Of a DNA stretch of 57,696 nucleotides, positions 17,540 to 37,234 are shown one piece after another (the stretch's first letter is position 1; each line of letters starts with the position of its first letter). Both the position numbers and the translations under genes were made by a program. The DNA comes from Pseudomonadota bacterium (GTDB lineage Bacteria; Bdellovibrionota_B; Oligoflexia; Oligoflexales; CAIYRB01): positions 1 through 57,696 of the forward strand of contig JAPLFX010000027.1 of assembly GCA_026390445.1 (NCBI GenBank), given 5' to 3'. The notes below the pieces were generated by a model. The model made no database searches. It saw nothing but the letters and a program-made list of their open reading frames with translations, and was not told where the DNA came from.

Positions 17540-19129
17540 TCAACCTCTCCAACGCTTGAGTAAAGTGCGGCCCAAAGTTGCACCTTCACCCAATTGGAAG
17601 GTGATCGTTGCACCCAGGTAGATGATGCCATACAGGCCAAGGACCAGCGCGCCCCTGACCACGGGGTAAAGTGGTGGCAGCGACCATTTAAGCAAAAGCG
17701 CAGACGCTGCGGCAACTGCAGCTGTAAGCCAGAGTTTGGCGACAAAACTTAGCTGTAGGTCGAACACGCCGAGCCTTCTGCTCAGTGCGCGTTTTAGTAG
17801 CCAGAATTCAACCCAACCCGCCACCCCTGCCGTTGCTGTAAGCGATGCAGCGCCGAGTGCCTCCGAGTAGCCAAATGCCACTCGCAAGGGTAGGGCGAAC
17901 AAGTAGCCGGCTGCCGCGGTGATCACAACCCTGACCAACGCAAAGCGCAGCGGAGTGCGCGCGTCCCTTAAGGCATAAAACGCAGTGGAGCAGAGGCGGC
18001 CTTGAGTCGATGCTAGTAGCCCGACTGTAGAGCCCGCCAAGATCAACCAAACATCGGTGACATCCTCTGCCTTAAATTGCCCGGTCTGAAATATCGTTGC
18101 GACGACTACGTCACCCAACGCGGCCAATGCCACCACTGAGGGAATGACAAAGAAACAGACTCGACGTAGGGCTGCCTCAATCTTAAGGCGGATCTGCTGT
18201 TCGACCATGACGGTGCTACCGCTGACTGAGGACATTTCAGGCAGCTCAGCGGCTGAGATCGACATACCAAAGAGGGACACCGGTAGCAGATAGAGCTGCT
18301 GGGCATAGGCCAGGGCCGCCACCATCGGCGCACCGAGAAAACTTGCCAATATTTGGTCGATATAGGCACTCAGTTGCACGACACCGCGGCTAGTGACTAC
18401 TGGTAGGAAGTTGTGCAATACAGCACGTACTGATGCGCTGGTTATTGCCAGCTCGGGGCGGATTCCCCGAGTTAGCCGCAGTGCGGCAGGAAGCTGAATG
18501 CCAAACTGTAAGATGCAGCCAACGATGGTTCCCCAGGCAACATCCCGGGCCAGTACCTGCTGTCCATCAGGTGTTACCGGTCGAACATAGGCAGAGAGCA
18601 ACAGGGCCCCGATGATGCCAACGTTCCACAGCACAGGGGCCATGTAGGGGAGCAGAAATCGTCGATGGCTATTGAGTATGCCGAGGCACCAGGCTGAAAG
18701 CACCAGCAGCGCAACGCCCGGAAACATAATTTGCACTAATTGCACCGTCAGGGTGCGGTCTTCGCCGCTAAATCCGGGCGCTATGAGATTTATGATCCAA
18801 GGGGTTACCAAGGTGCCGATGGTGGCTAAGATGGTTACGGCAAGTGCTAGCAAGGTCGCTACAGTCCCTGCGACTTGCACCGCCTCCTGGTCACGTCCTT
18901 CGGCGCGAAGGCGCGCATAGACGGGTATAAACGATGCGGACAGGACACCTTCTCCGAACAGGTTCTGTAGAAAATTAGGGATCTTTAGCGCTGCCCGAAA
19001 GGCGCCGGCAGCATGGGAACTACCCAGATAGTAGGCAAAGACCCGGTCTCGAATCAGACCAGATAGCCGTGACAAAAGGATCCCGGTAGCTACCGCTAAG
19101 GCTGCACCAGATGACCGCACACGTCCCAT
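17540..19129 (-). CDS. murJ: Lipid II flippase MurJ
   Basis: MurJ (529 aa) flips lipid II across the inner membrane for peptidoglycan synthesis. The N-terminus shows the MATE/MOP-family start, with RLSGLIRDRVFAYYLG (about 21-36) and the conserved LFGEGVLSASFIPVY region (about 57-71) carrying the essential charged residues. About 14 hydrophobic helices follow, and length is typical. The alternative, another MOP-family polysaccharide exporter, fits the N-terminal motifs poorly. It is divergent from lgt, another envelope gene. Confidence 0.94.
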   Translation of the reverse strand: MGRVRSSGAALAVATGILLSRLSGLIRDRVFAYYLGSSHAAGAFRAALKIPNFLQNLFGEGVLSASFIPVYARLRAEGRDQEAVQVAGTVATLLALAVTILATIGTLVTPWIINLIAPGFSGEDRTLTVQLVQIMFPGVALLVLSAWCLGILNSHRRFLLPYMAPVLWNVGIIGALLLSAYVRPVTPDGQQVLARDVAWGTIVGCILQFGIQLPAALRLTRGIRPELAITSASVRAVLHNFLPVVTSRGVVQLSAYIDQILASFLGAPMVAALAYAQQLYLLPVSLFGMSISAAELPEMSSVSGSTVMVEQQIRLKIEAALRRVCFFVIPSVVALAALGDVVVATIFQTGQFKAEDVTDVWLILAGSTVGLLASTQGRLCSTAFYALRDARTPLRFALVRVVITAAAGYLFALPLRVAFGYSEALGAASLTATAGVAGWVEFWLLKRALSRRLGVFDLQLSFVAKLWLTAAVAAASALLLKWSLPPLYPVVRGALVLGLYGIIYLGATITFQLGEGATLGRTLLKRWRG

Positions 19130-27572: not shown

Positions 27573-28631
27573 ATGAACAACCAGCCGGATCACCATACCA
27601 TCACCGCCGGTGGTGACCATATTTTAGTGCTTGGAGCGGGCAATTTCGGCACCTGCCTCGGGCATCATCTTGCCGAAAAAGGCTACCGCGTCACCATTTG
27701 GTGCCGCTCTAAAGAGGTCGCCGACGCCATCCAGGCCTACCATAAAAATCCCAAGTATCTTAGTACCATTAACCTATCTAAGCGGCTATCTGCAACAAGT
27801 ATGATCAGCGCGGAGCTGCTGGCTTCCGTGCAGGTCGTGGTTCACGCCACACCATTGCAAACGATGCGTTCCGTTTTACAGCAGCTAGCCCCCTATTGGC
27901 GGCGAGATCTGCGCTTGGTCTGTGCTGCCAAGGGAATTGAGATTGGCAGTTTGGCGTTGCCGGGGCGGGTGGTGGCAGACGAGCTAGGCAGCCACGCGGC
28001 GCATCATACGACGATTCTGTCTGGTCCGACGTTTGCCAGCGAGATGATCGTCCATCAACCGACGGCGGTGACTGCGGCTAGCAAGGACCGCGCCAGTGCT
28101 AGGCGGATTCAGGATCTATTTCACGCCGAGCATTTTCGCGTCTATACCAGCGATGACCCGATTGGTCTCGAAGTGGCTGGCGCCCTTAAAAATGTTGTTG
28201 CTTTGGCGGCGGGAGCGGCCATCGGCCTGGGGTTCCAGATGAACACTCGGGCTGGGATCATCACCCGCGGTTTGGCTGAGCTGACGCGGTTCGGTGTCGC
28301 ACTTGGTGCCAACCCTCTGACCTTCAATGGTCTCGGTGGTGTGGGCGACTTGTTTTTGACCTGTACGTCAGACAAAAGTCGAAATTTTACCGTTGGCTTT
28401 CGCGTTGGACGCGGTGAGACCTTAGCCGAGGTGTTGGCAGCGGTTGGTGTGGCCGAGGGTGTCGCCACGGCGAAAGCGGCTTATGCCTTGGCCCACCAGC
28501 TTGGCGTCGACGCACCGATCACGGCCGCTGTGTTCGATGTGCTCTATCAGGGTAAACCGATCGATCAAGCGGTTCGCCAGTTGATGACTCGAGCCTCCAA
28601 AGACGAACACAATTGGAGTAGCCGGGAGTAG
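27573..28631 (+). CDS. gpsA: Glycerol-3-phosphate dehydrogenase [NAD(P)+]
   Basis: GpsA reduces dihydroxyacetone phosphate to sn-glycerol 3-phosphate, the backbone precursor of phospholipids, in the cytoplasm. The 352-residue product has the dinucleotide motif GAGNFG at 21-26 (GAGxxG), a HATP segment closing the cofactor site, CAAKGIE, LSGPTFA and the catalytic-lysine region GALKNVVALAAG at about 205-216. FNGLGGVGDLFLTCTS is also characteristic. An N-terminal extension of about 15 residues precedes the Rossmann fold. GAGGGAG upstream of the ATG is a strong ribosome site. Confidence 0.95.
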   Translation: MNNQPDHHTITAGGDHILVLGAGNFGTCLGHHLAEKGYRVTIWCRSKEVADAIQAYHKNPKYLSTINLSKRLSATSMISAELLASVQVVVHATPLQTMRSVLQQLAPYWRRDLRLVCAAKGIEIGSLALPGRVVADELGSHAAHHTTILSGPTFASEMIVHQPTAVTAASKDRASARRIQDLFHAEHFRVYTSDDPIGLEVAGALKNVVALAAGAAIGLGFQMNTRAGIITRGLAELTRFGVALGANPLTFNGLGGVGDLFLTCTSDKSRNFTVGFRVGRGETLAEVLAAVGVAEGVATAKAAYALAHQLGVDAPITAAVFDVLYQGKPIDQAVRQLMTRASKDEHNWSSRE

Positions 28632-30540: not shown

Positions 30541-32490
30541 ATGGCAAAAAAAGCAAAATCGTCCAAATTATCGGCTGACGACGAGGCCACCGGCGAGGTG
30601 ATCGCCAAGGTCCGTAAGTCTGCCAAGCAGATCACCACTAGCAGCACTGCGGAGTACTTTTCAAAGAACCTGCAGCAGGTGGGCTTTTCGTCGCCGACCA
30701 AAGCGGTGCTCACGACGCTTAAGGAGGCGGTTGATAACTCCCTCGACGCGTGCGAGGACGCCGGTATTCTTCCGGACTTGAAGATTCGCGTCGAAAAGGT
30801 TGGATCCGGGTCGATGAAGAACACCGACCAGATCATCATTCGGGTCGAAGACAACGGGCCGGGCATCGATCCTGACGATGTACCGAAGGTCTTTGGGGAG
30901 TATCTTGCCTCGTCGAAATTTGGTCGAGGGCGCTGCTCACGGGGCCAACAGGGCATAGGCATTTCGGCTGCGACCACCTGGGCTATGCAGACGACGGCGA
31001 CCGGTGCGCGCGTTACGACAAAGAAGAAGGGGGCCCGCAAGGCCTTCACTTGCATCGTCGACATGGACCTGAAAAACAACAAAGGTGTGCTGCGATCTAA
31101 AGAATCGATCGAATGGAAGCCGGCCCATGGCACGGCGGTCGAATTCACTCTCGACGGTCGCATTCAACTCAATGGCGAGGGAGGGCTCCTTAACTACATT
31201 CGCAGTAGCGTTTTGTTGAACCCGCATATGTCGCTCAGCTACAACATCAGCGACGTTGCGCCTGCATCGATCGAGCGCGTGGTTAAGGACCTTCCTGTCG
31301 TTCCGGAGGCGACCGAGCCGCATCCGCATACGATGAAACTTGGCGAATTTATGTCGCACAGCCGCCTTTTCGGTAAGGTCAAAGCTAGTGTGTGGCTAAA
31401 GAAGGGTTTTTCCCGAGTCAACGACGCCGTACTAAAGGACCTGGTCACCAAGCAAAAGCTTAAAGCTGCAGTGCTCGATAAGAATATCGACACCATGCCG
31501 GATGGTGATTTCAAGGCGCTTTTTGCCGCACTGCAAGACGCGACCCTGCCGCCTCCAGCGACAACGTCGGTGTTGTCGGTCGGTGAAGACGGGTTGGCCT
31601 TAAGTATCCGTCGGTTGGGCGACATCGACTTCTTCGCGGTGCTCAGTCGAAAGCCATGTATTTGTGACTTTAAGCCCGTTCAGGTTGAAGTGGCCATTGC
31701 CCGGCTGCGCGATCGTCGTGGCGACGACAATGAAGAGCCGGTGCAGGTACTACGCTTTGCCAATCGGGTCCCACTGCAATTCGATAAGGCATCTTGCGCC
31801 ATCGTCAAGGCAATCACTTCGGTCAATTGGCGCTCCTATGGCCTCAAGCAACCTCGGGCTTCCTTGCCGCTTGGTCCATACATCGTCGCCGTCAGTGTCG
31901 TGTCGCCCTTTATCAAGTTCAAGAATGCATCCAAAGAAACAATTGATGCTTCCGATGAGTTGGTTGAGGAATTGCGGCGGGCATTGATGCAGACCGGTCA
32001 GCGCTTGTCGCGTTACTTAAGTCGCGAGCACAAAGCGGACGAACTTGAACAACGAGTGCAACACATCGAGCAGTTTGGCCCCATCCTGGTCGAAACCCTT
32101 GCGCGGATCCTACAAGCACCGCCGGAACGAAAGGCTTTGGCCACCGCTGGATTGGCTAAGTTGCTCGAGCGCGATACCAAGGGCATTAAAAAGGACCTAG
32201 AGGCAGCGGAAGACCGCCTGGCCAGCTATTTGGACGAGAAGAAGCAGCGTCTTTCGGAGTTTTTTGGTTCGATCGAGGAAGAAGAACAGGCAAGCAAGGC
32301 CGAGCGTAAAGCGGCGGCCGCTGCAGCAGCTGCCGCCGTTGCGAATCAGCCGGCAAAGGGCAAGGCTTCAGTTGCTGTCGCTGCGACGCCGGCAGCGACC
32401 TTGATCAAAGGGGCAAAGGGTAAGGCGAAGGCGCAGTCGGTCACCAAAGGTAAAGCGGCAGCAACCGCTGCCACGAAGAGTAAGGCGTAA
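30541..32490 (+). CDS. top6B: DNA topoisomerase VI subunit B
   Basis: The ATPase subunit (649 aa) of type IIB topoisomerase VI, which passes one DNA duplex through another. The GHKL ATPase holds the N box KEAVDNSLDACED (Asn66), the G1 box DNGPGID (104-110) and the lid SRGQQGIGISAA (133-144). An H2TH-like part (about 265-345, ending LSVGEDGL) follows, then the transducer with NRVPLQFDKASCAIVKAI (408-425) and a SPFIKFKNASKE segment with switch-lysine candidate Lys465. Residues from about 585 form an Ala/Lys-rich, histone-H1-like tail. The 30541 start is chosen because upstream residues look unconserved; GGGA lies close before it. It ends two bases before top6A, as expected for an A2B2 enzyme. 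Topo VI is mainly archaeal and plant; bacterial copies are rare. Confidence 0.93.
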   Translation: MAKKAKSSKLSADDEATGEVIAKVRKSAKQITTSSTAEYFSKNLQQVGFSSPTKAVLTTLKEAVDNSLDACEDAGILPDLKIRVEKVGSGSMKNTDQIIIRVEDNGPGIDPDDVPKVFGEYLASSKFGRGRCSRGQQGIGISAATTWAMQTTATGARVTTKKKGARKAFTCIVDMDLKNNKGVLRSKESIEWKPAHGTAVEFTLDGRIQLNGEGGLLNYIRSSVLLNPHMSLSYNISDVAPASIERVVKDLPVVPEATEPHPHTMKLGEFMSHSRLFGKVKASVWLKKGFSRVNDAVLKDLVTKQKLKAAVLDKNIDTMPDGDFKALFAALQDATLPPPATTSVLSVGEDGLALSIRRLGDIDFFAVLSRKPCICDFKPVQVEVAIARLRDRRGDDNEEPVQVLRFANRVPLQFDKASCAIVKAITSVNWRSYGLKQPRASLPLGPYIVAVSVVSPFIKFKNASKETIDASDELVEELRRALMQTGQRLSRYLSREHKADELEQRVQHIEQFGPILVETLARILQAPPERKALATAGLAKLLERDTKGIKKDLEAAEDRLASYLDEKKQRLSEFFGSIEEEEQASKAERKAAAAAAAAAVANQPAKGKASVAVAATPAATLIKGAKGKAKAQSVTKGKAAATAATKSKA

Positions 32491-32492
32491 TC

Positions 32493-33671
32493 ATGGCAAA
32501 GTCCCCGGTCGTCACCAAGCGCATTCGGAAGAATGACACTGAGATTATTCGTATGGGGCGGGAGCTCTGTGAACGAATGTTGGCAGATCTGGAGCGCGCC
32601 AAGCGGCCCTTGTTGCAGGCAACCAAGTGCGCCCTTGATAACTCCTTTTACAATTCCAAGGTTGGTTATTTGACTCCTGGCAGCAAGAAAGTCTCTTCCG
32701 AGCTCAATGTCAGCTCGGTGAAGAAGATTTCGCGTGCGATCTTTATGTTAGAGATCCTTCTGCGCAATGTCGAGATCTCCAACATCAATACCAAACGTGA
32801 GCTTTATTATGTGGCTAAAGGCCTGGTAAAGCATGAGACGATGCTGCGGCCGCTCGACTTTCAAGACCAAGACGAATCCGATTCCGTAATCGATTTTCTA
32901 TGTGAAATGATGGAGGCCTATCGGGAGGAGTTTAATTGCGTCGCTGATGACCGCGGCGGTCAAACCTACTCCAAGCAACTCATCGTCCAGGAAACGGAGC
33001 TCGACGGAAACGTCGCCACCGTTGATCTGTCGACTCTTGGGACCGCGCCGTATCAGCCGCGCAATCGCCCCCAGAACCTACAGCTTTCAACTCGCAGCAA
33101 GGTTGACTTTTGCTTGGTCATCGAGTCTCAGGGCACGGCCAACACCTTGGTCGCGAATGGCTTTACCAAGCGGCACAACTGCATCCTGATCGGTGCTCAG
33201 GGTGTCCCTTCCAACGCCGTGCGGGGCTGGGTACGACTGATCCAGGAGCAATTGAGCATCCCCCTATATTTCTTCGGCGACCTCGACGCCTATACGATGC
33301 AGAATATTTTCCGGACTCTCAAGGCAGGGTCTGCAGCCTCGCTCATCCGGAATTCAGACTTCTGTGCCCCTGAGGTGAAGTTCCTTGGTGTCTTGCCGGA
33401 AGATATCAAAAAATATGATTTGGTCGACTATCCGGTTAAAGAAAACGATGTTCAGGAAGCACGCGCCTTAAAAAAGGCCCGGGATGCCCTCGCTAATGAC
33501 CCCTTTTTCAAGGATAAGCGCAATAAGGAGTTAAAGGCGGTCTTGGAATGGTTGGTGAAGAACAAGCGCCGCTGTGAGCAACAGGCGTTCATCTCGGTGG
33601 ATCCACGCGACCCACAGATGATGGAAAAGATCATTATCGACAAGATTAAGTCGGGCGTTTACATCGAGTAG
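32493..33671 (+). CDS. top6A: DNA topoisomerase VI subunit A (Spo11-like)
   Basis: The DNA-cleaving subunit (392 aa), homologous to eukaryotic Spo11. The winged-helix (5Y-CAP) domain has the catalytic tyrosine motif NTKRELYYVAKG (Tyr105/Tyr106), which forms the 5'-phosphotyrosyl link. The Toprim domain has its acidic residues in CLVIESQG (Glu211) and FGDLDAYTM (Asp263, Asp265), which bind magnesium. The usual proline after the DxD motif is alanine here, and the canonical VEK after the first strand is IES; these look like lineage divergence rather than inactivation. Separated from top6B by two bases and from mfd by 8, so an operon is very likely. Confidence 0.93.
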   Translation: MAKSPVVTKRIRKNDTEIIRMGRELCERMLADLERAKRPLLQATKCALDNSFYNSKVGYLTPGSKKVSSELNVSSVKKISRAIFMLEILLRNVEISNINTKRELYYVAKGLVKHETMLRPLDFQDQDESDSVIDFLCEMMEAYREEFNCVADDRGGQTYSKQLIVQETELDGNVATVDLSTLGTAPYQPRNRPQNLQLSTRSKVDFCLVIESQGTANTLVANGFTKRHNCILIGAQGVPSNAVRGWVRLIQEQLSIPLYFFGDLDAYTMQNIFRTLKAGSAASLIRNSDFCAPEVKFLGVLPEDIKKYDLVDYPVKENDVQEARALKKARDALANDPFFKDKRNKELKAVLEWLVKNKRRCEQQAFISVDPRDPQMMEKIIIDKIKSGVYIE

Positions 33672-33679
33672 CTCTCTCT

Positions 33680-36600
33680 ATGACCTCCGTATTCAGTATT
33701 CGCAGCCTGATGCGGACAGCAGCCGTTGATCTTTATGCTGGGCGTCAGGTGCAGATTGCTGGTGTTTCCGAGTCCCTGTCTCAGCTGTTGCTGGTGCAGC
33801 TGGCCCTTGGCGATGGGGAGCATGCGGGTCGGCAGGTCGTGGTCGTTGTTCCTACCGCAAAGGATCTGACGCCATGGCTACACGCCATGGCTACACTTGC
33901 AGGTGCGGTATCGAAAACGGCCACCTTCAGCGCCGCAGTGCTGCCATCTATTTCACCCTATGGCAATGACCGCTTCATCAATCATCATCTGTCGCGGCGC
34001 CAGCGATTATTCGCACTAGCGCACTTGCTCTATCCAGCAGGCCCCACGGTCATCTTGACCACTGCGGTCGCTTTGGCACAGATGACACTTCACCCGCGGC
34101 TACTTCAAGGCGCCAGTTTACAGCTTAAAGCGGGCGCAGAGCTGGACCAAGATCAGCTTTTGGCGGCGCTAGACGATTTGGGTTACTTGCCAGCAGCTAG
34201 TGTAACCGAGGAGGGTACTTTTGCAGTGCGCGGCGGCATCGTCGATATCTTCCCCCCGAACCTAGAGGGTCCGATCCGCCTCGAGTTTACCTTTGATCAG
34301 CTGGCGTCGCTCCGAGCTTTCTCAGCGGTTGATCAGAAGTCTACGCGCACCCTTGGTGAAGTCCTGGTCATACCGGCTGATGAATCTCTGGTGCTCAGCC
34401 GTGAGCGTAAAGCGGACGCGCAGAAGCTGTTCAATCTGCTTCTGGAGCAACAGGTGAACCCTGCCGATCGTGATGGCATGCTGTCGCAGTTCCAGCAAGG
34501 GCTGAAATTTAGCGGTTTTGATATGCTTGCGCCGCTGTTTCGGCCCGATGCATCCCCTACCCTAGATAGTCTCGGGCCTCATGCAACGCTGCTATTTCCG
34601 CAAAGCATCGAGCGCTGCATGGAATCCTATCGCGCCTTCTATGCTGCTACAGAGCAATCACTGGAGCAAGACGTCGCACGGCATCGGCCAACGCTGCCGA
34701 TTTCCGCGCATTTCATGCAGCCCGATGATTTCCTTGCCAAGCTTCGCGCAGTGGGTTCGGTGCTGGAGTTTGGCAATCCTTTTGCGACCCCGGAGGCCTT
34801 GTTTTACCGCCTCGATGCTAAGTTAAGTCTGCCGGGGGCGCCGCTGGCCTCGTCTCCCGGCACTGAATTGTTCGACAAGTGGACCCAGGTTTTGGCTCGC
34901 TACACCGCCGAGGAAGGCGGCAAGGTCGCGATCCTAGCGCCGCATGCAGAGCAGATCGAGCGAGTTGTGAACCTGCTGCAGCACCGCGGCCTGAGCCCAG
35001 TCGTCGAGGACGGTTTAGTCGTCCGCCTGGTCCAAGGGAGGAGTGCTGCTCAGTCCTTAAGTGTTGGTCTGGGTGAACTAGCTGGACCATTATGGTTTGA
35101 AGAAGAGGGACTTCTTGTCCTGCCAGACACGGCGCTTTTTGGTCCCCGCCCGCGCAGAACCAAGCCCGCTGCGCAAAAATTGCAGAATTTTCTTAATTCC
35201 TTTGCCGACCTTAAGACCGGAGATTTGGTCGTGCACGTCCAGCATGGGATCGGGCGCTACAACGGCCTGACCAGTTTGGCTGTGGCAGGTCTAGCCAGTG
35301 ATTTTCTTCTGATTGAGTATGCTGGTGGCGACAAGGTCTACCTACCTGTCGATCGCATGAACTTGCTGCAGCGCTACAATACAGGTGGCGAGGGTGGCGC
35401 TCAACAGCTTGTCGATAGACTCGGTGGCCCCGCCTGGGAGCGGCGCAAGGCCAAGGCCAAGGGCGCCATCCACGACATGGCAGAAGAATTGCTGAAGCTA
35501 CAGGCACAGCGCGCCATTGCACCAGGTCATGTTTTTGCTCCGCCCGACGCCGCTTACCTCGAATTTGAAGCAGCATTCCCTTACGATGAAACTCCTGACC
35601 AACTTCGGGCGATCGCCGATGTTGACGCCGATCTGGTCTCGGGCAAGCCGATGGATCGACTGATTTGCGGCGACGTGGGCTTTGGCAAGACCGAAGTGGC
35701 ATTGCGAGCGGCCATGCGCACCGTGCTTGAAGGCATGCAGGTGTTGATCCTGGTCCCGACCACTGTCCTCTGCTATCAGCATTATCGGACCTTTTCCCTG
35801 CGCCTGGAGCGCCACGGCGTGCGGGTGGCGCAGGTGAACAGGTTTGTCAATGCTGTGGATACCAAGCAGGCCCTTGCCGGGCTAAGTTCTGGACAGGTGG
35901 ATATCCTTGTCGGGACGCACCGGATGCTATCAAAGGACATCAAGCCCTCTCGTCTGGGCTTGCTGGTGGTCGATGAAGAGCAACGCTTCGGGGTTAGTCA
36001 CAAAGAAAAGCTCAAAGAACTCAGGGCAGGGGCCCATGTGCTCACGCTGACTGCCACGCCGATTCCTCGGACCCTTCATATGGCTATGATAGGAATGCGC
36101 GATATATCGATTATCGCCACTCCCCCAGAGGCGCGGCTCGCGGTAAAGACTTATATTACCAAGGCCGACGACGTCCTAATCAAAGAGGCGATTGAGCACG
36201 AAGTGCGCCGGGGCGGCCAGGTCTTCTATGTGCATAATCGCGTCGAAGACATCGCTGAGGTCGGGCTGTATATCAAGAGCCTCGTGCCTTTTGCCGAAGT
36301 GCGTGTGGGTCACGGTCAAATGCCCGAGCACCAGCTTGAAAAGGTCATCGTCGATTTTATCGAGCAAAAGTTTCAGGTGCTCGTCTGCACTACGATCATC
36401 GAGTCCGGCATCGATATGCCTAATGTCAACACCCTGATCGTCAGTCATGCGCATCGCTTTGGTCTGGCGCAGCTATATCAGCTGCGAGGTCGAGTCGGTC
36501 GGGCCAACCTTCAGGCTTTTGCCTATTTCCTGACGCCTGGGCAGGAGCGGCTGTCGCCGGAAAGCTGGAAACGTTTGGAGGTGCTCGGTGCTCATCAGGA

Positions 36601-37234
36601 GCTTGGCGCAGGATTCCAAATCGCAAGCCACGACTTGGAGCTGCGCGGCGCCGGTAATTTGCTCGGTGGCGAGCAGTCTGGGTACGCAACGTCAGTCGGG
36701 CTAGAACTCTATACAGAGATGCTTGAGGACGCGATTCATGCCTTGCGCGGGGAGCAGGTTCCCGAGCGTTTTGATACCGAGATCAAGATTCCCGTGTCGG
36801 CCTTTATCGCTGCCAGCTTTGTGCCGCAGGAAGCGCAGCGCTTGCAATTGTATAAGCGTCTGTTTGCGGCCGACGGCGAAGAGGCGCTGCGTGGACTCCG
36901 GCGGGAAATAGTCGACCGCTTTGGCGAGCTGCCGCCTGAATTGGTCTTATTATTTAAAGTGGCGCGCATCAAGCAGCAGCTTAAACAGATTAACGCGATC
37001 CGTTTGACTGCTGGCAAAGGAGTCTTCGAGATACGTTGCGCACCACTTTCGGACCAGCGCATTGACCGCGTCCTAAAAGTGGTGGCCCACCAGCCGGGGC
37101 GCTACAAGTTGGCTCCCGATGGGCGCATTTTACTGTTTCATGACTTTTCGCTCCAGCCGTCGCTCGCTGAACAAGATGCCATGCTAACGGCCCTGGTGGG
37201 TCTGATAAGTCCGCTGACCGAGGCCTTCGAGTAG
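33680..37234 (+). CDS. mfd: Transcription-repair coupling factor Mfd
   Basis: Mfd (1184 aa) is a DNA translocase that pushes stalled RNA polymerase off damaged DNA and recruits UvrA. In order: a UvrB-like N-terminal part, the RNA-polymerase-interacting domain with HVQHGIGRYNGL near 518, and the RecG-like translocase with Walker A GDVGFGKT at 664-671, DEEQRFG at 765-771, TATPIPRTLHMAMIGMRD and RGRVGRANLQAFAYF. The C-terminal TRCF domain closes it. The length is complete. The ATG has only a weak GAG-type ribosome site, so expression may depend on coupling with top6A, 8 bases upstream. Confidence 0.96.
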   Translation: MTSVFSIRSLMRTAAVDLYAGRQVQIAGVSESLSQLLLVQLALGDGEHAGRQVVVVVPTAKDLTPWLHAMATLAGAVSKTATFSAAVLPSISPYGNDRFINHHLSRRQRLFALAHLLYPAGPTVILTTAVALAQMTLHPRLLQGASLQLKAGAELDQDQLLAALDDLGYLPAASVTEEGTFAVRGGIVDIFPPNLEGPIRLEFTFDQLASLRAFSAVDQKSTRTLGEVLVIPADESLVLSRERKADAQKLFNLLLEQQVNPADRDGMLSQFQQGLKFSGFDMLAPLFRPDASPTLDSLGPHATLLFPQSIERCMESYRAFYAATEQSLEQDVARHRPTLPISAHFMQPDDFLAKLRAVGSVLEFGNPFATPEALFYRLDAKLSLPGAPLASSPGTELFDKWTQVLARYTAEEGGKVAILAPHAEQIERVVNLLQHRGLSPVVEDGLVVRLVQGRSAAQSLSVGLGELAGPLWFEEEGLLVLPDTALFGPRPRRTKPAAQKLQNFLNSFADLKTGDLVVHVQHGIGRYNGLTSLAVAGLASDFLLIEYAGGDKVYLPVDRMNLLQRYNTGGEGGAQQLVDRLGGPAWERRKAKAKGAIHDMAEELLKLQAQRAIAPGHVFAPPDAAYLEFEAAFPYDETPDQLRAIADVDADLVSGKPMDRLICGDVGFGKTEVALRAAMRTVLEGMQVLILVPTTVLCYQHYRTFSLRLERHGVRVAQVNRFVNAVDTKQALAGLSSGQVDILVGTHRMLSKDIKPSRLGLLVVDEEQRFGVSHKEKLKELRAGAHVLTLTATPIPRTLHMAMIGMRDISIIATPPEARLAVKTYITKADDVLIKEAIEHEVRRGGQVFYVHNRVEDIAEVGLYIKSLVPFAEVRVGHGQMPEHQLEKVIVDFIEQKFQVLVCTTIIESGIDMPNVNTLIVSHAHRFGLAQLYQLRGRVGRANLQAFAYFLTPGQERLSPESWKRLEVLGAHQELGAGFQIASHDLELRGAGNLLGGEQSGYATSVGLELYTEMLEDAIHALRGEQVPERFDTEIKIPVSAFIAASFVPQEAQRLQLYKRLFAADGEEALRGLRREIVDRFGELPPELVLLFKVARIKQQLKQINAIRLTAGKGVFEIRCAPLSDQRIDRVLKVVAHQPGRYKLAPDGRILLFHDFSLQPSLAEQDAMLTALVGLISPLTEAFE

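What the first reader, a model, noticed from the sequence alone, without database searches (positions are those of the whole stretch)
30541..33671. Topoisomerase VI (A and B) in a bacterium
Both subunits are full length, two bases apart, and carry the ATPase, Tyr and Toprim residues. Topo VI is characteristic of archaea and plants and is rare in bacteria, which usually rely on gyrase and topo IV. This may be transferred or ancient, and may have a specialised job such as decatenation.
Basis: partly seen in the sequence, partly recalled or inferred. Interest (0 to 1): 0.8.

Follow-up and report, generated by a model that had tools for sequence, protein, structure and literature searches.

The report
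Topoisomerase VI in an Oligoflexia bacterium
This bacterium really carries both genes of topoisomerase VI, an enzyme best known from archaea and plants; that is already known for its wider group, where the enzyme probably does the DNA-untangling job usually done by topoisomerase IV, but this bacterial form lacks some DNA-gripping residues of the archaeal enzyme, and a relative turned up in a giant virus of bacteria.

Summary
Top6B (30541-32490, +) and Top6A (32493-33671, +) are complete, two bases apart, and match topo VI by Pfam, NCBIfam, PDB sequence and fold, with every checked catalytic residue present. It is not contamination: all 7 genomes of its family carry it, and three families of its order keep it between gpsA and mfd. 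The genome is Oligoflexia-like and has one gyrase and no ParC/ParE. Topo VI in this wider group (Bdellovibrio) is already published, so the headline is known.

Best reading: gyrase supercoils and topo VI decatenates in place of topo IV. In the sister phylum at most 2 of 172 topo VI-plus genomes have a second type IIA enzyme, against 87 of 119 without topo VI; but this is mostly one deep split, and a tree-aware pair test is not significant.

Less expected: (1) all 80 Top6B sequences examined from this lineage lack the basic KGRR loop essential in the archaeal enzyme, and 79 of 80 lack stalk R457; (2) many carry a lysine-rich tail; [quoted passage not shown] (4) a 482-kb T4-like phage contig carries top6BA among its replication genes.

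The parts
30541..32490 (+). top6B, topo VI subunit B (GHKL ATPase, H2TH, transducer)
   Evidence: fold match to 2q2e_B/9o0g_B, E 1e-27 to 1e-38
30736..30960 (+). GHKL ATP-binding motifs: N66, DNGPG 104-108, RGQQGIG 134-140
   Evidence: invariant in 33 homologues; aligned to M. mazei and S. shibatae
31159..31185 (+). loop R207-G215 (RIQLNGEGG) at the place of the archaeal KGRR T-segment loop; basic residues replaced
   Evidence: R188->G in 80/80 and R189->E/D in 80/80 lineage sequences; a loop between strand 197-206 and helix 216-226 in the model
31555..32055 (+). Topo-VIb transducer domain, with VNWRSYG (WKxY motif) and switch Lys465
   Evidence: PF09239 150 bits
32218..32487 (+). C-terminal tail of Top6B; last ~50 residues Ala/Lys-rich and predicted disordered; no Ig-like archaeal domain
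   Evidence: +11 net charge in the last 60 residues; pLDDT <50 at 599-649; variable tails in relatives
32493..33671 (+). top6A, topo VI subunit A (winged helix + Toprim)
   Evidence: fold match 1d3y, E 4e-17
32808..32810 (+). catalytic Tyr106 (second Tyr of RELYY)
   Evidence: aligned to S. shibatae Y106; invariant
33123..33287 (+). Toprim acidic residues E211, D263, D265
   Evidence: invariant in 20 homologues; aligned to M. jannaschii
33680..37234 (+). mfd, 8 bases downstream of top6A; synteny partner
   Evidence: conserved beside or near top6A in the genus and in families f3 and f11 and related MAGs
27573..28631 (+). gpsA, upstream synteny anchor

Best explanation
A complete, probably active type IIB topoisomerase (A2B2), long resident in the Bdellovibrionota/Oligoflexia lineage. 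ATP closes the Top6B dimer on a second duplex, Top6A Tyr106 cuts the first duplex, and the second is passed through. In this organism gyrase is the only type IIA enzyme found, so topo VI most likely does the decatenation and chromosome unlinking that topo IV does elsewhere. Shown here: gene integrity, residues, fold, absence of detectable topo IV, conserved synteny. Inferred: enzyme activity, the decatenation role, and possible compensation for the missing basic loop by other contacts such as the basic tail.
For: Families, residues and folds. One GyrA with GyrA box QRRGGKG and one GyrB, no second type IIA enzyme in the genome nor in the other six genomes of its family. Sister phylum: a second type IIA enzyme in 87 of 119 topo VI-minus genomes, against 6 of 172 topo VI-plus; 4 of those 6 are gyrA genes split by contig ends or frames. 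M. mazei topo VI is a preferential decatenase (PMC8837201), and it is reported, as unpublished data, to complement an E. coli parE-ts strain (PMC11302465). Synteny conserved over families f1, f3, f11.
Against: On a GyrA tree of 159 genomes the topo VI/topo IV exclusion is mostly clade-driven: of 12 independent supported pairs only about 3 differ in topo IV, and the sign test is not significant. Many relatives have neither enzyme (all 14 genomes of family f13), so gyrase alone can suffice. Family f10 has both. The genome is a 93% complete MAG. The KGRR loop, essential in M. mazei, is not conserved, so archaeal biochemistry may not carry over fully.
Confidence: 0.75

Rival explanations
1. Topo VI does a specialised job (for example unlinking multiple chromosomes before filament division in predators, or recombination) while gyrase alone does bulk decatenation.
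For: Genomes with neither topo VI nor topo IV exist (20 of 57 in its phylum); family f10 keeps all three enzymes.
Against: Conserved in all genomes of its own family; in the sister phylum the genomes with neither are a minority (31 of 118 topo VI-minus genomes with a type IIA hit, some of them very small assemblies).
Confidence: 0.2
2. Recent horizontal transfer or contaminating archaeal DNA.
For: The family is archaeal in origin; a different, Methanococcales-like topo VI (54-58% identical to M. jannaschii Top6A) occurs in six sampled Bdellovibrionota genomes.
Against: The window proteins are only about 34% (A) and 32% (B) identical to the nearest archaeal chains (values for L002, which is 98-99% identical to the window), form a fully supported clade with other bacterial ones, and sit at a conserved chromosomal site.
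Confidence: 0.03
3. A retooled enzyme that cuts DNA (Spo11-like or defence nuclease) rather than a strand-passing topoisomerase, since the KGRR loop and stalk Arg457 are lost.
For: Neutral or acidic replacement of KGRR abolishes productive strand passage in M. mazei (PMC5922973); the loss is fixed in this lineage.
Against: All catalytic, ATPase and transducer elements are kept and strongly conserved; the replaced loop is itself conserved (NG[ED][AG]G), as expected of a retuned rather than dead part.
Confidence: 0.05

Closest known systems
Topo VI of Bdellovibrio bacteriovorus (Bd2864 and neighbour; PMC11318664, PMC11302465)
   Same: Same enzyme and same wide lineage; gyrase present, topo IV absent according to PMC11302465. 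The relative Bdellovibrio sp. qaytius is 66% (A) and 61% (B) identical to the window.
   Different: The window belongs to another phylum-level group, has top6BA at a gpsA-mfd site not seen in the Bdellovibrionota loci, and has a longer Ala/Lys-rich Top6B tail than qaytius.
Methanosarcina mazei topo VI (2Q2E, 9O0G)
   Same: Same folds, catalytic residues and domain order; that organism also has gyrase.
   Different: M. mazei Top6B has the KGRR loop, stalk R457 and an Ig-like C-terminal domain; the window has LNGEGG, Gln and a disordered tail.
Bacterial topo IV (ParC/ParE)
   Same: Presumed cellular job.
   Different: Type IIA, unrelated breakage subunit; not found in this genome.
Actinobacterial TopA lysine-repeat tail (PMC7398561)
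   Same: Topoisomerase with a basic C-terminal region that raises processivity.
   Different: Type IA enzyme; for Top6B the effect of the tail is untested.

Membership tests
DNA topoisomerase VI (type IIB) | Paired A and B subunits | tested here: met
   Adjacent complete genes
DNA topoisomerase VI (type IIB) | Top6B GHKL + H2TH + transducer, switch Lys | tested here: met
DNA topoisomerase VI (type IIB) | Top6A winged helix with catalytic Tyr and Toprim E...DxD | tested here: met
DNA topoisomerase VI (type IIB) | Basic KGRR loop in the T-segment cavity (functional in M. mazei; not a definition of the family) | tested here: not met
   R188->G and R189->E/D in 80/80 of this lineage. S. shibatae and haloarchaeal loops differ in letters but stay basic
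DNA topoisomerase VI (type IIB) | ATP-dependent decatenation/relaxation with 2-nt staggered breaks | not testable with these tools
   needs purified enzyme
Spo11 / Top6B-like meiotic complex | Top6B-like partner without H2TH | tested here: not met
   H2TH-bearing archaeal Top6B chains are the best fold matches, aligned over 472-520 columns; H2TH region aligned
Topo VIII | Carried on free or integrated plasmids | tested here: not met
   Conserved chromosomal site with mfd/gpsA; plasmid hits only to three haloarchaeal records at 25-27% identity

The most novel reading that the evidence does not exclude
Bdellovibrionota/Oligoflexia topo VI is a distinct bacterial subtype in which T-segment sensing has been rebuilt (acidic NGE/D loop for KGRR, Gln for stalk Arg457, often a basic disordered tail), which serves as the resident decatenase beside gyrase, and which a 482-kb T4-like phage has captured as its own replicative type II topoisomerase in place of the T4-type enzyme.
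Probability: 0.35. Interest if true: 0.65.

Novelty: new member of a known kind. Interest (0 to 1): 0.4.

Why it matters
Why bacteria keep topo VI is an open question (PMC11302465). [quoted passage not shown] A phage-borne copy would be a tool and a possible transfer route.

Tried and rejected
Topo VI versus topo IV exclusion first looked overwhelming (Fisher p 1e-38), but a GyrA tree and independent pairs showed it to be mainly one deep split; I do not claim correlated evolution. Looked for remnants of top6 in the 0.67-kb gpsA-mfd gap of topo VI-minus genome G004: none. Placement of the lineage among archaea could not be resolved: only 3-4 archaeal sequences were at hand and the stem branch is very long. 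Other bacterial topo VI (Myxococcota, Planctomycetota) could not be fetched, so whether they share the loop change is unknown. Named phages in INPHARED have no topo VI-A match. No paper linking topo VI with huge phages or describing topo VI in Oligoflexia was found in the library.

Full report
OBSERVATION. Top6B runs 30541-32490 and Top6A 32493-33671, both on +, two bases apart; mfd starts 8 bases after top6A. Pfam and NCBIfam give topo VI B and A over full length; the A subunit falls slightly under the NCBIfam curated cut-off, as may be expected of a divergent member. Best PDB relatives are all topo VI, and AlphaFold models made from lineage alignments match 1d3y/9o0g (A) and 2q2e/9o0g/1mu5 (B). 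The models are of moderate confidence (pLDDT 72 and 68), so they are used only for fold and for the position of loops. The catalytic Tyr, Toprim acids and GHKL motifs are invariant in the lineage.

ORGANISM AND SETTING. The window lies in a 4.17-Mb, 93% complete MAG. The neighbourhood nuoH-nuoA / gpsA-(mazG)-top6B-top6A-mfd-ppiC, or much of it, is kept in the genus and in families f3 and f11. In topo VI-minus relatives gpsA lies next to mfd directly (family f13) or with a 0.67-kb gap without top6 remnants (G004), so top6BA was inserted into, or cleanly lost from, this site. This is resident chromosomal DNA, not contamination.

TYPE II TOPOISOMERASE INVENTORY. The genome has one GyrA (GyrA box QRRGGKG) and one GyrB, and no ParC/ParE match. 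In its phylum (58 genomes held) topo VI is in 30. Of the 57 genomes with data: VI+IV- 23, VI+IV+ 7, VI-IV+ 7, VI-IV- 20. [quoted passage not shown] Allen and Maxwell (PMC11302465) reported that combination only in Pseudomonadota and Terrabacteria, so this extends it. In f10 genomes G026, G029 and G032 the topo IV and topo VI genes lie 12-18 kb apart on one contig. In Bdellovibrionota proper (291 genomes sampled) topo VI is in 172. A second type IIA A-subunit occurs in 87 of 119 topo VI-minus genomes but in at most 2 of 172 topo VI-plus ones, once gyrA genes split over contig ends or frames are removed. A GyrA tree shows that this is chiefly one large VI+IV- clade and one large VI-IV+ clade; at least 16 changes of topo VI and 15 of topo IV occur on the tree, and an independent-pairs test gives no significant opposition. 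Substitution of topo IV by topo VI is therefore the best reading of the present state, but not a demonstrated evolutionary rule.

ORIGIN. All 90 (A) and 80 (B) lineage sequences, two phyla together, form one fully supported clade on a long stem. Six other Bdellovibrionota genomes carry a separate, Methanococcales-like topo VI, 54-58% identical to M. jannaschii Top6A. This agrees with the multiple archaea-to-bacteria transfers proposed in PMC11302465 and shows two of the types within one phylum.

WHAT IS UNUSUAL. In M. mazei the KGRR loop (K186, R188, R189) and the stalk/WKxY residues (K399, K401, R457) are needed for strand passage (PMC5922973), and R457 and K401 touch DNA in the cryo-EM structures (PMC13040014). 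In 80 of 80 lineage Top6B sequences R188 is Gly and R189 is Glu/Asp (consensus [GA]R[IV]Q[LVM]NG[ED][AG]G); in 79 of 80 R457 is Gln and K399 is Asn; K401 stays Lys/Arg and H2TH K268 stays basic. K399 is not conserved among archaea either, so only the loop and R457 are clear differences. The Methanococcales-like Bdellovibrionota copies keep a basic RGR/KGR loop and R457. One Arg just before the loop (R207) remains, so the cavity is not stripped of all charge, and gap placement inside so short a loop is uncertain by a residue. Many Top6B proteins end in disordered Lys/Ala/Thr-rich tails of very variable length, up to about 200 residues in f10-like sequences; the window's tail has +11 net charge in its last 60 residues. 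A role in raising DNA affinity or processivity, as reported for actinobacterial TopA (PMC7398561), is a guess.

PHAGE COPY. The only topo VI found among 2.9 million viral contigs is on IMGVR_UViG_3300028558_000016 (482,156 bp). That contig has a Gp23-type major capsid protein, prohead protease, terminase, tail sheath, tail fibres and several tRNA clusters, at an even G+C of 36-39%. Top6B and Top6A (62% and 67% identical to the window) lie between the two halves of a split T4-like DNA polymerase and upstream of a UvsX recombinase. No GyrA/B or ParC/E match and no other GHKL motif was found on the contig; a divergent T4-type enzyme is not strictly excluded. Top6A has no PHROG match, and the phage proteins nest inside the Bdellovibrionota part of the tree, with moderate support. 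The same loop change is present (GRIQANGELGL). One contig only; chimerism was not tested with reads.

VERDICT. The headline finding is real but known in kind. The added value is the inventory in the group, the lineage-wide loss of the KGRR loop, the three-topoisomerase family and the phage copy.

Noticed in passing
L297:9030-11856 (G349, IMGVR_UViG_3300028558_000016, about 251.0-253.9 kb): Complete top6B-top6A pair on a 482-kb T4-like huge phage contig, between halves of a split DNA polymerase and near UvsX; only match in 2.9 M viral contigs, none in INPHARED.
   Followed up: partly
L302:6757-9273 (same phage contig): 838-aa protein with Major Vault Protein shoulder and vault repeat domains, unexpected in a phage.
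   Followed up: no
L300:8020-8092 and 18276-18349 (same phage contig): Two predicted tRNAs with CTA anticodon (called tRNA-Pyl by ARAGORN), possible amber suppressors; TAG recoding in part of this phage was not tested.
   Followed up: no
[quoted passage not shown]
   Followed up: partly
L260, L261, L262, L275, L276, L277: Second, Methanococcales-like topo VI in six Bdellovibrionota genomes, an apparently separate transfer.
   Followed up: partly
G062, G071, G087 and G093, G111: Topo VI-minus Bdellovibrionota with unusual second type IIA A subunits: near-GyrA scores (about 500 bits, 713-778 aa) in three, short 477-480 aa forms in two.
   Followed up: no
G044-G057 (family f13): None of 14 genomes has topo VI or a ParC match; apparently gyrase-only (G046 has an isolated ParE-like match).
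   Followed up: no
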